Assembly (NCBI RefSeq): GCF_018205345.1 | Contig: NZ_JADRHM010000018.1 | Span: 1-38,377 of the forward strand | Reading direction: 5' to 3' | DNA: 38,377 nucleotides | From: Fusobacterium sp. DD2 | GTDB taxonomy: Bacteria > Fusobacteriota > Fusobacteriia > Fusobacteriales > Fusobacteriaceae | Shown: positions 10,410 to 16,930 of the stretch, one piece after another | Layout of the letters: every line of letters starts with the position of its first letter | How positions within the stretch are numbered: the first letter of the stretch is position 1 | Notes under the pieces: generated by a model | Told to the model about the DNA's origin: nothing | The model's database searches: none | Seen by the model: the letters and a program-made list of their open reading frames with translations, nothing else | Program-made: the position numbers and the translations under genes

Positions 10410-11510
10410 ATGGGAAAATTTTTAGGGTTATTAATAGGAGTATTTTCAGTGATTTCAATTGGGGCATATGCATGTACAGGAATAACAGTAAAAACAGAGA
10501 AGAATGAGATAATAATGGCCAGAACTGTAGAGTATGGAGAGGGAAATCTGCACAGCAAACTGATAGTATCTCCAAGGGGGAAAGAGTATCAGTCATTGAC
10601 ACCAGATGGGAAAAATAATGGCCTTAAATGGAAAGGGAAATATGGCTTTGTAGGAATTTCTCTATTAAATGATCTCTTTATAGGAGAAGGGATAAATGAA
10701 GCAGGATTAAACGCAGGACTTTTCTATTTTCCACACTATGGTAATTTAAAAAGATTTGATCCAAAACTTGCTAAAAAAACTTTAGTTGATTTACAGTTTG
10801 TAAGCTGGATGTTATCTAACTTTAAAAATGTAGATGAAGTTAAAGAGGGACTTAAGAAGATAATTGTAACAAATATACAGTATTTAGATGATGGAACACC
10901 ACTTCCTACTGCACATTGGAGAGTTGCAGATAAAAATGGCGGAAATATTGTAATTGAAATAGTAAATAATGGAGAGGTTAAAATATATGAAAATAAGGTA
11001 GGAATTTTAACTAACTCTCCAGATTATGATTGGCAGGTAAAAAATCTGAATAACTACATAAATCTATATGCAGGTAATGCAGAGAATTATGAAAAAAATG
11101 GACAGAAGATTTTTTCATTTGGAGCAGGAACAGGGATGCTAGGACTTCCAGGAGATATTACTCCACCATCAAGATTTGTAAGAGCTTTTTTCATGTTAAA
11201 CACTTTAAAAACTCCAACAAATGCCTATGAAGGTGTAATTGACAGTTTCCATATTCTTAATAATTTTGATATACCTATTGGTTTGGAGTATTCAAAAGAG
11301 CATCAAAAATATATTCCTGAAGGAATAAGAAGTGCTACTCAGTGGACAGCAGCAAGTAATTTAAGTGATGGTGAGTTTTATTATAAAACAATGTACAATG
11401 ATCAAATTAGAAAGGTCGATCTGAGTAAAATTGATTTTTCAAAAGTGGGCTTTAAAAGTTTACCATTGGATCCAGATATGAAGGAAAATATAAAAGAGGT
11501 AGAAATTTAG
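10410..11510 (+). CDS. Exported linear amide C-N hydrolase (choloylglycine hydrolase/penicillin V acylase family, Ntn fold)
   Basis: N-terminal-nucleophile hydrolase that cleaves linear amides such as conjugated bile salts, penicillin V or N-acyl amino acids and lactones. Residues 1-21 form a signal peptide ending AYA. Cleavage there would expose C22 as the N-terminal nucleophile, so export and activation could be the same step. An arginine (R38) sits 16 residues after the cysteine, as in the family; 19 residues after it is E41 (ARTVEYG), where bile-salt hydrolases and penicillin V acylases have Asp. The later TNSPDYDWQ and PSRFVRAFF segments match the Asn and Arg active-site regions. The start has GAGGAGGAGATAA. 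AYAC is not a good lipobox, so a periplasmic rather than lipid-anchored protein is expected. The substrate cannot be told from sequence. Confidence 0.85.
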   Translation: MGKFLGLLIGVFSVISIGAYACTGITVKTEKNEIIMARTVEYGEGNLHSKLIVSPRGKEYQSLTPDGKNNGLKWKGKYGFVGISLLNDLFIGEGINEAGLNAGLFYFPHYGNLKRFDPKLAKKTLVDLQFVSWMLSNFKNVDEVKEGLKKIIVTNIQYLDDGTPLPTAHWRVADKNGGNIVIEIVNNGEVKIYENKVGILTNSPDYDWQVKNLNNYINLYAGNAENYEKNGQKIFSFGAGTGMLGLPGDITPPSRFVRAFFMLNTLKTPTNAYEGVIDSFHILNNFDIPIGLEYSKEHQKYIPEGIRSATQWTAASNLSDGEFYYKTMYNDQIRKVDLSKIDFSKVGFKSLPLDPDMKENIKEVEI

Positions 11511-12869: not shown

Positions 12870-12924
12870 ATATATTATACATTTATATTAAATTGGAGTA
12901 TACTTTACACAACAATAGAATAAT

Positions 12925-13084
12925 AGATAGGTAGCGAAGGACAAAAGTAATTACACTCAGCTTGGCAGGCGATCAGGTGTGATGAAAGGGGAATTTGCTG
13001 AAGTAGAAAAGAAGGCTGAACTTTTTTATTAGTGGTATGGATAATATTCATATTACTCCATTTTATTGTAGTGGAAATCTATCT
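12925..13084 (+). promoter_or_regulatory. Lysine riboswitch (L-box) aptamer
   Basis: Closing stem P1 pairs AGATAG (12925-12930) with CTATCT (13079-13084). The L-box landmarks follow in order: the AGCGAAGGACAAAAGTAA segment corresponding to the GCGA...AGUA part of P2; a hairpin closed by TTACAC/GTGTGA; the conserved GATGAAAGGGGAA; then TTTGCTGAAG (consensus GCCGAAG), whose TTGCT pairs back to AGCGA. P4 is AGTAGAAAAG/CTTTTTTATT (10 bp). P5 is ATGGATAATAT/ATATTACTCCAT with one bulged C. An intrinsic terminator follows at 13095 and spmA begins at 13157. Known lysine riboswitches of this layout shut transcription off when lysine is abundant. The call rests on motif and stem recognition, not a covariance-model score. 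Confidence 0.85.
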
Positions 13085-13094
13085 TTAAATGTGT

Positions 13095-13120
13095 ATCACA
13101 GTTTCAGCTGTGATTTTTTT
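13095..13120 (+). terminator. Riboswitch-controlled terminator before spmA
   Basis: ATCACAG (13095-13101), loop TTTCAG, CTGTGAT (13108-13114), then a T-run to 13120. It lies 10 bases after the riboswitch P1 stem and 36 bases before the spmA start, the expected place for a lysine-dependent attenuator. I could not identify a clear antiterminator pairing. Confidence 0.85.
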
Positions 13121-13156
13121 ATTTCTAATGATAATTATGATTTTGAGGAGGAGAAA

Positions 13157-13771
13157 ATGATAAATGCAATTTGGTGTTTCTTAATAGTAGTTGGAATATT
13201 AGTTGGAATGGTAACTGGACATACTCAGGATGTAACTGATGCAGCGATTAAATCTGCAGGAACAGGAGTTACTCTTTCTTTAGAGATGATTGGAATAATG
13301 GCATTGTGGTTAGGACTTATGAAAATAGCAGAAGAGGCAGGAATGGTAAGAGGTCTTGGAAGACTTATGAAACCTATTATGGTAAGACTGTTTCCTGAGG
13401 TACCAGCAGATCACCCAGCTATGGGTAGTATGGTAGCAAATATGGCTGCAAATGTATTTGGTCTTGGAAATGCAGCAACTCCATTAGGAATTAAAGCTAT
13501 GCAGGAGTTACAGGAGTTAAATACAAATAAAGATGAAGCTTCAAATGCTATGATAATGTTTTTAGCTATTAATACATCTTCAGTAACATTGATTTCATCA
13601 AGTGTAATTGCATATAGAGTTGCAGCTGGATCTGTAAATGCTCCTGAAATAATTGCACCTACAATAGTTGCAACAGCAGTATCTACAACTGTAGCAATAA
13701 TTGCATGCAAGATATTTGAAAAACTTCCTAAATACAGAAGGGAAAAAGTTAACGAACCAGCAAGAGCTTAA
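13157..13771 (+). CDS. spmA: SpmA-like nucleoside-recognition (Gate) domain membrane protein
   Basis: Polytopic inner-membrane protein of the SpmA family, 204 residues, at normal length. The diagnostic NMAANVFGLGNAATPLGIKAMQEL is at about residue 97, with the hydrophobic segments FLIVVGILVGMV at the N-terminus and the TIVATAVSTTVAIIA segment before the C-terminus. In Bacillus, spmA/spmB act in spore core dehydration and lie in an operon with a D,D-carboxypeptidase; in non-sporulating bacteria their substrate is unknown. The ATG at 13157 follows GAGGAGGAGAAA. A longer frame from 13037 would run through the riboswitch and terminator and is rejected. Position behind a lysine riboswitch suggests a role in uptake of lysine or a lysine-containing peptide; this is inference. 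Confidence 0.9.
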   Translation: MINAIWCFLIVVGILVGMVTGHTQDVTDAAIKSAGTGVTLSLEMIGIMALWLGLMKIAEEAGMVRGLGRLMKPIMVRLFPEVPADHPAMGSMVANMAANVFGLGNAATPLGIKAMQELQELNTNKDEASNAMIMFLAINTSSVTLISSSVIAYRVAAGSVNAPEIIAPTIVATAVSTTVAIIACKIFEKLPKYRREKVNEPARA

Positions 13772-13803
13772 TAAAATCAAAAAAATCTTAGTGGAGGGAA
13801 AAA

Positions 13804-14343
13804 ATGTTTATAACAATAATGGAAAAAATTTCACTATATGCAATACCTGTGATACTATTAGTAATAGTAGGATATGCTTATTTTGTAAAAAAAGTAAAAG
13901 TATATGAAGTATTTTGTGAGGGAGCTAAAGAGGGATTTACAACTTCAATAAGAATTATCCCATTTTTAGTAGCAATGCTTGTTGCTATTGGAATATTTAG
14001 AGCTTCTGGATGTATAGATATAATGCTTAGAGTGTTAGACCCTGTATTCCAATTTATAGGAATGCCAGGAGAGGTTCTTCCTCTTGCAATATTAAGACCA
14101 CTATCAGGTGGAGGAGCAAGTGGAGTAATGAATGATCTGTTAATTACTTATGGACCTGATTCATTAATAGGTAGAATTGCTTCAACTATGATGGGTTCTA
14201 CTGAAACAACTTTCTATGTATTAGCAGTATATTTTGGTGCTGTAAGTATAAGAAAGATAAGACATGCTGTAGTAGTAGGATTGATTGCTGACGTTGCAGG
14301 ACTTTTAACTGCTGTATGGGTTTGTAGATTAATATTTGGATAA
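13804..14343 (+). CDS. spmB: SpmB-like nucleoside-recognition (Gate) domain membrane protein
   Basis: Partner of SpmA, 179 residues, full length for SpmB. Landmarks are the first membrane segment (IPVILLVIVGYAYFVKKVKVYEVFCEGAKEGF), IPFLVAMLVAIGIFRASG, the conserved RPLSGGGASGVMNDLL, and MMGSTETTFYVLAVYFGAVSIRKIRHA near the C-terminus. SpmA and SpmB are thought to form one complex in the membrane. The gene starts 32 bases after spmA with a GGAGGGAAAA site, and the same riboswitch should control both. No terminator separates it from the following dacB gene (33-base gap), so the operon probably continues. Confidence 0.9.
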   Translation: MFITIMEKISLYAIPVILLVIVGYAYFVKKVKVYEVFCEGAKEGFTTSIRIIPFLVAMLVAIGIFRASGCIDIMLRVLDPVFQFIGMPGEVLPLAILRPLSGGGASGVMNDLLITYGPDSLIGRIASTMMGSTETTFYVLAVYFGAVSIRKIRHAVVVGLIADVAGLLTAVWVCRLIFG

Positions 14344-14376
14344 AATATTAAAATATAAAAAGTATTGGAGATTGAT

Positions 14377-15921
14377 ATGTACAAAAAATTTAAAATTTTA
14401 CTTATGTTGTCGTTTTTAATTGCTAGTTGTAACAAAATGCCTGTGGCAAATGATAAGGAATTTGTTTCAACTAATCATATGGAAAAATCTATTGAGGTTT
14501 CAGCTTCTAGAAATACTCCTGAAGTAGAAAAATCCTTAAATGAAATTGAATCATCTGAGGAGATTTCAAAAGGAGAAAATATTGAAACTGATGGGATTAA
14601 GGCTCCAACTGGAAAAACTATAGAGTTGGGAGATATGTTGAAGAATAGTAATATGTCTTACTATGCAGTGGATCTTGATAGTGGTGAAGTGCTAGCTGAT
14701 TACAGGGGAGAAAATATTGCTACTCCTGCATCTGTAATGAAAATAGTTACTTCTGCAACTGCTCTTGATATTTTAGGAGAAGAGACAAAGTTAGAGACAA
14801 AACTTCTGTATGATGGAAAAATTGACAAAAGTGGAGTTTTAAATGGAAATCTCTATATTAAAGGAAGTGGAGATCCCACTTTAGGTTCTGAGAATTTTAA
14901 AGGGGATAGAGAGAAGTTTTTAAAAGACTGGGTATCTGATACTAAGAAAGCTGGAATAAAGAGCATTAAAGGGAATATCATAGTCTTAGATGACCTTTTT
15001 GGTTATGATGGTGTATCTGGAAAATGGTTACTGGAGGATTTAGCTTCAGGGTATGGACAAAGTGTATATGGAATAAGTCTATTTGATAATGTGTGCACAA
15101 TATTTTTAGATTCAGATTCAAAAGGTGGAAAAGTGGTAAAGGTTGTTCCTAAAGTTCCAAATCTTACTTTTGTAAATAACCTTAAAATTTCACCTAAGGG
15201 AAGAAATGATGTTTATGTAAGAGGACTTCCTTTTGAAAATAAAAGAACACTTGTAGGAGAGATACCAGCTAATCAGAAAAACATAGTGGTAAAAAGTGAT
15301 ATTCCAGATCCAGGAATGTTTTTAGGTGAATATTTTAAAGAGAGATTAACAGATGCTGGAATTAGTGTAAATGGAAAGGTAGAAACAGCAAGAACAACAC
15401 AGAAAAGACCTAAAAATCCAGTTGTTATAGGAGTTGCTGAATCTAAAACAATTGGAGAGATGATAAATGTACTTTTAGTAGAAAGTGATAATCACTATGC
15501 AGAACATCTTTATCAATTAATGAAATTAAAAGGTGTAGATATAAAAGAATATTGGGAAGAAAAAGGGATAGATACTTCTGCGCTTGGTATATTTGATGGA
15601 AGTGGATTATCAAGAGCAGATTATATTTCAGGAAAAACTCTAACAGATATTCTTGTATATATGTATCATAATTATCCAGAATATGTAGGTTTTCTTCCAA
15701 AAGCAGGATATGAAGGAACTGTTGTTGGATTTTTAACAGCAGAAAGATTTGATGGAGAAGCAAGAGTAAAAAGCGGAAGTATGGGAGGCGTTCAATCCTA
15801 TGCAGGTTATATGGAAAAGGATGGGAAAAAGGTTGCTTTTACTATAATGATAAATCATTGGAATGGAAGCAGAAATCAGGTAAAAAGAGAGATTGAAGAT
15901 TTACTTAATAAATTATTTTAG
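14377..15921 (+). CDS. dacB: D-Ala-D-Ala carboxypeptidase/endopeptidase, PBP4 (peptidase S13) family, predicted lipoprotein
   Basis: Penicillin-binding protein that trims the terminal D-Ala of peptidoglycan stem peptides and can cut cross-links. The three active-site motifs are present: SVMK (S119, K122), SDN in LVESDNHYAEHL, and KSG in VKSGSMGGVQSYAGYM. The N-terminus is a lipoprotein signal (LSFLIASC, lipidated Cys at residue 18), then about 65 residues of low-complexity linker before the enzyme domain, so it is expected to be tethered to a membrane. The ATG at 14377 has GGAG six bases upstream; a TTG four codons earlier overlaps this site and was rejected. The 514-residue length is normal for S13 enzymes plus linker. 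It follows spmB without a terminator and precedes ldcA by nine bases. Confidence 0.92.
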   Translation: MYKKFKILLMLSFLIASCNKMPVANDKEFVSTNHMEKSIEVSASRNTPEVEKSLNEIESSEEISKGENIETDGIKAPTGKTIELGDMLKNSNMSYYAVDLDSGEVLADYRGENIATPASVMKIVTSATALDILGEETKLETKLLYDGKIDKSGVLNGNLYIKGSGDPTLGSENFKGDREKFLKDWVSDTKKAGIKSIKGNIIVLDDLFGYDGVSGKWLLEDLASGYGQSVYGISLFDNVCTIFLDSDSKGGKVVKVVPKVPNLTFVNNLKISPKGRNDVYVRGLPFENKRTLVGEIPANQKNIVVKSDIPDPGMFLGEYFKERLTDAGISVNGKVETARTTQKRPKNPVVIGVAESKTIGEMINVLLVESDNHYAEHLYQLMKLKGVDIKEYWEEKGIDTSALGIFDGSGLSRADYISGKTLTDILVYMYHNYPEYVGFLPKAGYEGTVVGFLTAERFDGEARVKSGSMGGVQSYAGYMEKDGKKVAFTIMINHWNGSRNQVKREIEDLLNKLF

Positions 15922-15930
15922 GAGATTTTA

Positions 15931-16848
15931 ATGGTAGGAAAGAGACTTAAAGATGGAGATACAATAGGTATAGTTGCACCAGCTAGTTTTTCAAGTGAGG
16001 AGAAAATAGAGAGTGCAAAGGAAAACCTTGAAAACCTGGGTTTCAAGGTTGTGCTAGGAGAATGCACTAAAAAAAGATGGTTTTCTTATGCAGGAACAGA
16101 TAGAGAAAGAGCTCATGAGATAAACAGATTTTTTGAAGATCCTCAAATTGATGCAATTATCTGTATGCGTGGTGGATACGGATGTAATAGAATAGTTGAG
16201 TTACTTGATTATGAACTTATTAAAAAAAATCCTAAAATTTTTGTAGGATATAGTGATATTACAATACTGCATATCAGTTTAAATGAAAAAGCAGGACTTA
16301 TTACCTTTCATGGACCAATGGCTGTAAGCAATTTTTCAGGAGAGTATGATAAAAATACATATGAAAGTTTTATACAAATGGTAAATGGGAAAGAGCTAGT
16401 GAGTATTAAAAACTTTAGTAAAGAGATAGATGTAATCTCTTCTGGAAAAGGTCAGGGGAGACTAGTTGGAGGAAATCTTGCAACTTTAATTGCAACTCTA
16501 GGAACAGAATATGACATTGATTATAATGGGAAGATACTGTTTCTAGAAGAGGTTGGAGAAAAAACTTACAAAATTGATAGAATGTTAAATCAATTAAAAA
16601 AGCATAATGTTTTTGAAAAAGTATCAGGAATCATATTGGGAGATTTTAAAAACTGTAATAAGGATGCCCAGGAAGATATGTCTCTTAATGAGGTTTTTGA
16701 AGATTACTTTAAAGATTTACCTGTTCCAGTTTTAAGTGGAATAGAAAGTGGTCATTCAGAACCAATGCTTACGCTACCTTTAGGAGCTATGTGTAAAATT
16801 GATTCAGAGAACAAAAGTATAGAGATCTTAGAAAAGGTAGTGGAATAA
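15931..16848 (+). CDS. ldcA: L,D-carboxypeptidase (peptidase S66, LdcA/MccF family)
   Basis: Serine peptidase that removes the terminal D-Ala from murein tetrapeptides during recycling; relatives (MccF) cleave microcin C. The 305-residue protein has the S66 layout: nucleophile S108 in FVGYSDIT, a glutamate of the catalytic triad at E206/E207 in FLEEVGEKTYKIDRML, and histidine H275 in GIESGHSEPMLTLPLG. ICMRGGYGCNRI at about residue 77 is the family's oxyanion-region signature. No signal peptide is present, so it should act in the cytoplasm on imported wall peptides. The ATG at 15931 has an AGGAG site and lies nine bases after dacB, so the two carboxypeptidases are almost certainly co-transcribed. 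A strong terminator follows at 16897. Confidence 0.92.
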   Translation: MVGKRLKDGDTIGIVAPASFSSEEKIESAKENLENLGFKVVLGECTKKRWFSYAGTDRERAHEINRFFEDPQIDAIICMRGGYGCNRIVELLDYELIKKNPKIFVGYSDITILHISLNEKAGLITFHGPMAVSNFSGEYDKNTYESFIQMVNGKELVSIKNFSKEIDVISSGKGQGRLVGGNLATLIATLGTEYDIDYNGKILFLEEVGEKTYKIDRMLNQLKKHNVFEKVSGIILGDFKNCNKDAQEDMSLNEVFEDYFKDLPVPVLSGIESGHSEPMLTLPLGAMCKIDSENKSIEILEKVVE

Positions 16849-16896: not shown

Positions 16897-16930
16897 AAAT
16901 GTTCGTAAAATATTTTACGAACATTTTTTT
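16897..16930 (+). terminator. Intrinsic terminator of the spmAB-dacB-ldcA unit
   Basis: A 15-bp perfect inverted repeat: AAATGTTCGTAAAAT followed directly by ATTTTACGAACATTT (16897-16926), running into further Ts. It is the first terminator seen after the riboswitch terminator at 13095. Confidence 0.9.

What the first reader, a model, noticed from the sequence alone, without database searches (positions are those of the whole stretch)
12925..16848. Lysine riboswitch controlling spmA-spmB and probably two peptidoglycan carboxypeptidases
Seen: an L-box aptamer (12925-13084) with a following terminator (13095-13120), then spmA, spmB, dacB and ldcA with gaps of 32, 33 and 9 bases and no further terminator until 16897. 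Known: lysine riboswitches normally control lysine synthesis or uptake; Spm proteins are known from spore maturation in Bacillus, where they lie with a different class of D,D-carboxypeptidase. Inferred: in this diderm, SpmAB may be a transporter for lysine, a lysine-like diamino acid or a wall peptide, made when lysine is scarce, with the two carboxypeptidases trimming or recycling wall peptides that contain such residues. This would give the Spm pair a function outside sporulation.
Basis: partly seen in the sequence, partly recalled or inferred. Interest (0 to 1): 0.82.

Follow-up and report, generated by a model that had tools for sequence, protein, structure and literature searches.

The report
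Worn lysine riboswitch before wall-salvage operon
A cell-wall salvage operon, built round the poorly understood SpmA-SpmB pair, is switched by a lysine-sensing RNA in related bacteria, but in this species the RNA has lost its lysine pocket; the gene company suggests that SpmA-SpmB is a transporter for wall peptides or their lysine-like amino acid.

Summary
RF00168 matches 12920-13089 at 60.8 bits, a terminator follows, then spmA-spmB-dacB-ldcA.

Of 51 lysine aptamers in 12 genomes of the genus, the window copy scores lowest. It departs from 10 of 43 near-invariant positions (49 of 56 aptamers depart at none), losing the three guanines that floor the lysine pocket. The helices survive through compensatory changes. 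The antiterminator that makes the relatives' leaders OFF switches is gone, while the terminator stays. Lysine control has therefore probably been lost here. This genome also lacks dapA and dapB but keeps lysA and dapF.

In 10 of 11 other species the linkage recurs, nine with good aptamers. In four the operon runs spmA-spmB-ldcA-ThrE-lysA-M20-YfcC. spmAB-ldcA, with or without dacB, lysA, dapF or alr, recurs in at least three further phyla (ldcA adjacency P = 8e-6). A fused SpmA-SpmB homologue is predicted to fold like elevator transporters.

Best explanation: SpmAB is a two-part transporter serving salvage of wall peptides or diaminopimelate towards lysine. Substrate and direction are inferred. 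No lysine riboswitch was found beside spmAB outside this genus in the few loci tested.

The parts
12875..12904 (+). Promoter: -35 TTATAC (relatives TTGTAC), 18-base spacer, -10 TATACT
   Evidence: Hexamers aligned across the spm leaders of the genus; the -10 is kept in 10 of 11 and the window carries a changed -35
12920..13089 (+). Lysine riboswitch aptamer (RF00168): helices intact, ligand pocket worn
   Evidence: 60.8 bits; lowest of 51 in the genus; 10 of 43 near-invariant columns changed; 46 of 51 scored pairs standard
12930..12935 (+). J1/2, normally GAGGuGC, here GGUAGC: pocket bases A10/G11/G12 changed or deleted
   Evidence: role of G11 from PMC3764141
13057..13060 (+). J4/5, normally UGUCA, here UCCA: G141 lost
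   Evidence: role of G141 in the pocket-floor quartet from PMC3764141
13073..13081 (+). J5/1, normally GGAGnGCUA, here GGAAAUCUA: G163 to A and G165 to U
13095..13120 (+). Intrinsic terminator, stem 13095-13114, retained; the antiterminator partner CUGUGA found after P1 in relatives is missing
13157..13771 (+). spmA (Gate domain; predicted first half of a transporter)
   Evidence: PF07670, E = 1e-13
13804..14343 (+). spmB (Gate domain; predicted second half of a transporter)
   Evidence: PF07670, E = 2.8e-14
14377..15921 (+). dacB: S13 D,D-carboxypeptidase/endopeptidase with a lipobox-like N terminus (LIASC) and SVMK, SDN and KSG motifs
   Evidence: PF02113 222.8 bits; TIGR00666 194 bits; motifs read from the sequence
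15931..16848 (+). ldcA: S66 L,D-carboxypeptidase, no signal peptide seen, GYSDIT and GH motifs present
   Evidence: PF02016/PF17676
16897..16933 (.). Terminator that closes the unit (13-pair stem, T-tract)

Best explanation
The window carries a spmA-spmB-dacB-ldcA operon whose leader descends from a lysine riboswitch of the OFF, transcription-termination kind. In the relatives, lysine binding stabilises P1, which frees the terminator; without lysine the CUGUGA after P1 pairs with the terminator's 5' arm and transcription goes on. SpmA and SpmB are the two halves of an elevator-type secondary transporter. DacB in the periplasm and LdcA in the cytoplasm trim cell-wall stem peptides, and the module salvages these peptides, or the diaminopimelate in them, towards lysine through DapF and LysA. 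In the window species the lysine pocket and the antiterminator have decayed, so the operon has probably lost lysine control and is expressed by read-through or by other means. Shown by sequence: the riboswitch ancestry, its recurrence in relatives, the lost pocket and antiterminator, and the gene company across phyla. Inferred: the OFF logic, the transporter substrate and its direction, and the loss of lysine response.
For: Riboswitch and linkage. OFF logic in relatives: antiterminator fold -8.7 to -17.2 kcal/mol in nine relatives against -1.3 in the window; terminator arm sequestered upstream with probability 0.70-0.82 in eight relatives against 0.18 in the window. Other riboswitches of the genus precede lysC-asd-dapA-dapB, lysA-dapF and NhaC- or YfcC-like transporters, classic OFF targets. 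lysA in the spmAB operon of four species. Cross-phylum company: spmAB with ldcA, dacB (S13), dapF/lysA or alr; LdcA within two genes of SpmAB in 11 of 164 near ORFs against 2 of 496 far ones, P = 8e-6. Transporter fold: model pLDDT 86, pTM 0.82, best PDB matches VcINDY, YdaH/MtrF and CNT. Pocket loss: with the role of the bases from PMC3764141. DapA and DapB absent while LysA and DapF are present in the window genome.
Against: No transport or binding measurement exists. The PDB fold matches are weak (best E = 6e-4, TM about 0.4), and the fold was predicted on a fused homologue from another phylum. The link between dapAB loss and riboswitch wear is imperfect: G024 seems to lack dapAB (71% complete genome; its 99% complete sister G029 also lacks them) yet keeps a 110-bit aptamer. 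In G024-G028 the riboswitch lies about 235-340 bases before spmA, with room for a second promoter. Genera of the same phylum with spmAB-ldcA have no riboswitch there. The common product of DacB and LdcA is D-alanine, so D-alanine is a possible substrate too.
Confidence: 0.5

Rival explanations
1. The aptamer has been retuned, not lost: a variant riboswitch with a changed pocket senses another ligand, such as lanthionine, diaminopimelate or a stem peptide, and still governs termination.
For: Helices are as complete as in relatives (46 standard pairs of 51 scored; 6-8 both-sided compensatory changes against each of four relatives and few broken pairs), while the pocket bases changed. A second species (G023), not a sister of the window species, independently has a J1/2 deletion, C79 to U and a changed G165. 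Both lack dapA and dapB.
Against: No antiterminator can be found in the window leader, so no switch mechanism is visible; the two worn copies share only part of their changes.
Confidence: 0.12
2. The aptamer is still a working lysine riboswitch with an unusual pocket, and the operon is lysine-repressed.
For: Significant match to RF00168; P1, the terminator and the -10 are kept.
Against: The three guanines G11, G141 and G163 of the pocket floor are all changed or lost, and the antiterminator is missing.
Confidence: 0.15
3. SpmAB exports lysine or another amino acid released when wall peptides or dietary peptides are broken down, so it is a relief valve, not a salvage importer.
For: In G025-G028 a ThrE-type exporter pair and a YfcC-like antiporter lie in the same operon, and a second spmAB copy lies beside an Opp-type peptide importer.
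Against: An exporter of lysine would need an ON switch; the relatives' leaders read as OFF switches, and lysA, a lysine-making enzyme, shares the operon.
Confidence: 0.15
4. SpmAB handles D-alanine set free by DacB and LdcA, and the lysine riboswitch merely reports the state of wall-precursor supply.
For: Both enzymes release D-alanine (established knowledge); alanine racemase lies before spmAB-ldcA in Romboutsia; B. subtilis spmAB lies with a different D,D-carboxypeptidase (established knowledge, not tested here).
Against: lysA and dapF recur in the neighbourhoods, and the riboswitch ligand is lysine in the relatives.
Confidence: 0.15

Closest known systems
Lysine riboswitch / L box (RF00168) upstream of biosynthesis or transporter genes
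   Same: Sequence and helix architecture; in relatives an intact pocket and a terminator/antiterminator platform
   Different: Target is spmAB with wall carboxypeptidases, which the lysine-riboswitch survey PMC5584792 does not mention; the window copy has lost pocket bases and the antiterminator
SpmA-SpmB spore maturation proteins of Bacillus and Clostridium
   Same: Same protein family (Gate domain, adjacent genes), company of a D,D-carboxypeptidase
   Different: The carboxypeptidase here is S13, not the spore type; S66 ldcA is added; found in diderm lineages not known to sporulate
Peptidoglycan recycling systems (AmpG, Opp/MppA with LdcA)
   Same: A transporter beside a cytoplasmic L,D-carboxypeptidase
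   Different: The transporter is unrelated to AmpG or ABC importers; its substrate is unknown
Elevator-type secondary transporters (DASS VcINDY, AbgT YdaH/MtrF, CNT)
   Same: Closest solved folds to the predicted fused SpmAB
   Different: No sequence relatives in the PDB; here split into two genes

Membership tests
Lysine riboswitch (RF00168) | Score over the gathering cut-off across the full model | tested here: met
   60.8 bits against 30, model 1-182
Lysine riboswitch (RF00168) | Five-helix architecture with standard pairs | tested here: met
   46 of 53 pairs standard, 2 gapped, 5 non-standard; relatives 46-49 standard
Lysine riboswitch (RF00168) | Conserved pocket bases (G11, G141, G163 and neighbours) | tested here: not met
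   All three changed or lost in the window (positions from PMC3764141)
Lysine riboswitch (RF00168) | Expression platform with mutually exclusive terminator and antiterminator | tested here: not met
   Terminator kept, antiterminator absent in the window; present in nine relatives
Lysine riboswitch (RF00168) | Binds lysine | not testable with these tools
   Needs in-line probing
SpmA/SpmB family | Two adjacent proteins with Gate domain PF07670 | tested here: met
   adjacent genes
SpmA/SpmB family | Role in spore maturation | not tested
   No experiment; the lineage is not known to sporulate (background knowledge)
Elevator transporters of the DASS/AbgT/CNT kind | Same fold with two inverted halves | tested here: inconclusive
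   Foldseek best E 6e-4, TM about 0.4-0.47 for the DASS and AbgT matches, on a fused homologue
S13 D,D-carboxypeptidase (PBP4) | S13 profile and SxxK, SxN, KTG-like motifs | tested here: met
   PF02113 and TIGR00666 over cut-off; SVMK, SDN, KSG in the sequence
S66 L,D-carboxypeptidase (LdcA) | S66 N- and C-terminal domains | tested here: met
   PF02016 146.8 bits, PF17676 138.6 bits

The most novel reading that the evidence does not exclude
The worn aptamer is a variant riboswitch whose pocket has been retuned from lysine to another wall amino acid, such as lanthionine or diaminopimelate, in species that lost dapA and dapB, and SpmAB is the transporter for that ligand or for wall peptides that contain it: a new family of wall-peptide transporters that would also explain the Spm proteins of spores.
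Probability: 0.1. Interest if true: 0.85.

Novelty: new variant of a known kind. Interest (0 to 1): 0.6.

Why it matters
SpmA and SpmB have been known from spores for decades without a molecular function. The gene company found here (ldcA, dacB, lysA, dapF, alr) in several phyla, a predicted transporter fold, and a lysine riboswitch in one genus make a testable proposal: SpmAB carries wall peptides or their diamino acid. It also gives a natural series, from a good riboswitch through a worn one to none, alongside loss of dapA-dapB, in which loss or retuning of a riboswitch can be studied.

Tried and rejected
An alternative antiterminator in the window leader, for example the P2 strand GUGUGAU pairing with AUCACA, was looked for: the terminator arm is paired upstream with a mean probability of only 0.18. 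Common descent of the window and G023 aptamer changes was rejected because the MnmG tree puts G023 inside the G019-G023 clade; the shared states look convergent. A first version of that tree was discarded because two sequences were misread at contig edges. The HisR reading of the window genome's DapF was not pursued: it matches DapF over the cut-off (271.6 bits) and its best PDB hits are DAP epimerases. Lysine riboswitches beside spmAB in Bacillota were sought in ten loci and not found. Literature: no held paper joins lysine riboswitch with SpmA, and none of the papers listed for three or more of the Spm and wall-recycling terms is, by title and abstract, about such a link; the library is partial.
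Full report
OBSERVATION. The elements described are present. RF00168 matches 12920-13089 over its full length with 60.8 bits, E = 1.2e-13. A terminator lies at 13095-13114 and a bidirectional one at 16897-16926. Between them lie spmA (13157-13771), spmB (13804-14343), dacB (14377-15921) and ldcA (15931-16848), with gaps of 32, 33 and 9 bases. Families: Gate PF07670 twice, S13, S66. Promoter-like matches within the unit are no more than chance gives, so nothing in the sequence argues for a separate start before dacB, but none is excluded.

LINKAGE IN RELATIVES. Of 98 genomes of the phylum, 92 carry at least one lysine riboswitch; SpmA relatives are found in 23 of 98 genomes by the tool's tally, in three genera. 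In the window's genus (12 genomes) a riboswitch lies before spmA in 11: the window, G019-G023 and G024-G028; it is missing in G029. In the two other genera with spmAB none of the eleven loci scanned (L044-L054) has a riboswitch near spmA. Gene order in G019-G023 is riboswitch-spmA-spmB-dacB-ldcA, as in the window. In G025-G028 it is riboswitch, about 340 bases, spmA-spmB-ldcA-ThrE-ThrE_2-lysA-M20 amidohydrolase-YfcC-like transporter, with murI just upstream (in G027 lysA is split between two frames). These four species have a second spmAB without riboswitch beside an Opp-type operon.

SWITCH LOGIC. In nine relatives the bases CUGUGA or CUGUGG directly after P1, overlapping its 3' strand by two bases, can pair with UCACAG of the terminator's 5' arm. 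In eight of them the arm is sequestered by that segment with probability 0.70-0.82 before the 3' arm is made; G024 is weaker at 0.21. P1 formation would break this pairing and free the terminator, so the relatives' leaders read as OFF switches. This is inference from base pairing. The rest of the regulon agrees: other riboswitches of the genus precede lysC-asd-dapA-dapB, lysA-dapF, NhaC-like and YfcC-like transporters. Lysine riboswitches with ON logic are known before lysine-breakdown genes, one in Fusobacterium nucleatum (PMC5584792), so the logic had to be checked.

THE WINDOW COPY IS WORN. It has the lowest score of 51 copies in the genus; G023's spm copy is second lowest at 78.4 bits, and the other spm copies score 110-122. 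In an alignment of 56 aptamers from the phylum, 43 columns are at least 95% conserved; the window departs at 10, G023_spm and one other at 3, four at 1 and 49 at none. By the numbering of the T. maritima structure, G11, G163, G141 and A162 form the quartet that floors the lysine pocket (PMC3764141). In the window the J1/2 segment that holds G11 is shortened and changed, G141 is lost and G163 is A. The register between the structure's numbering and this RNA is my own mapping through the Rfam consensus, and two aligners place the J1/2 change differently. The helices are not worn: 46 of 51 scored pairs are standard, as in relatives, with 6-8 both-sided compensatory differences and one to seven pairs broken in either partner. 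The antiterminator is gone (-1.3 kcal/mol; arm paired with probability 0.18) while the terminator stays. The -35 hexamer is TTATAC where relatives have TTGTAC. The simplest reading is loss of lysine control with a scaffold not yet eroded. Retuning to another ligand is not excluded.

METABOLIC SETTING. DapA (TIGR00674) and DapB (TIGR00036) are over cut-off in G019-G022 and G025-G028 and missing in the window genome, G023, G024 and G029. The window genome is 99.95% complete and keeps LysA (442.9 bits) and DapF (271.6 bits), without a riboswitch hit before them. It could turn diaminopimelate from outside, or from salvage, into lysine, though LysA and DapF might serve other substrates: in F. nucleatum, which lacks diaminopimelate synthesis and uses lanthionine, a DapF-like protein proved to be a histidine racemase (PMC11602996). 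Good riboswitches before spmAB occur in all eight dapA-dapB-positive genomes; of the four others two are worn, one is absent and one is good (G024). The species tree from MnmG and its paralogue puts the window species as sister to G019-G023, with G023 inside that group, so the wear arose at least twice.

WHAT SPMAB DOES. A scan of GTDB genomes with SpmB gave 80 loci from many phyla. In 11, ldcA lies within two genes of spmAB on the same strand: Tissierella, Romboutsia, Geosporobacter, two other Bacillota, a Goldiibacteriota MAG and five loci of Neomarinimicrobiota or unnamed bacteria. In those five the order is dacB(S13)-ldcA-spmA-spmB, the window's four genes in another order. One Bacillota locus continues with dapF and lysA (TIGR00652, TIGR01048 over cut-off), Geosporobacter has lysA upstream, and Romboutsia has alanine racemase upstream. 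LdcA near against far: 11 of 164 against 2 of 496 ORFs, P = 8e-6; only unfused spmAB loci show it (11 of 44 against 0 of 31 fused, P = 0.002). The loci are not independent draws, so the P values are guides. A fused homologue (L132, 428 aa) folds with pLDDT 86 and pTM 0.82 into two helical halves; the best PDB matches are VcINDY, AbgT transporters and CNT, all elevator-type, with modest scores. Together this supports a transporter, and the gene company points to stem peptides, diaminopimelate or D-alanine. LdcA acts in the cytoplasm, so a partner that brings peptides in is the natural guess; direction and substrate are not shown.

VERDICT. In the window itself the riboswitch is probably a relic or a variant. 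No paper in the held library was found to join SpmAB to a lysine riboswitch, but that library is partial.

Noticed in passing
L092:6566-7047; L094:5808-6288; L096:6457-6936: Two lysine riboswitches stand back to back in G025-G027, one before lysC-asd-dapA-dapB and the other before an M20 amidohydrolase gene (not called in G027).
   Followed up: partly
L066, L068, L070, L072: A second spmAB copy without riboswitch lies next to an Opp/Dpp-type peptide ABC operon in G025-G028.
   Followed up: partly
L065:8577-9368: Glutamate racemase (murI) lies just upstream of the riboswitch-spmAB unit in G025-G028.
   Followed up: no
window 10410-11510: Choloylglycine hydrolase or penicillin V amidase-like protein with an N-terminal signal-like stretch, below the curated cut-offs.
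   Followed up: no
window SpmA+SpmB against relatives: The SpmAB branch of the window species is long (0.31 against 0.056 for G023), while the LdcA branches are alike (0.30 and 0.29); possible relaxed constraint on SpmAB.
   Followed up: partly
G026:C1:2744787-2746336 and 3799631-3801180: The dapA-dapB pair is present twice with identical scores in G026, a possible recent duplication.
   Followed up: no
L117:592-6102, L120:3388-8924: The dacB-ldcA-spmA-spmB unit is flanked by a class-I glutamine amidotransferase-like gene and an amino acid permease gene (confirmed by Pfam in L117 only).
   Followed up: partly
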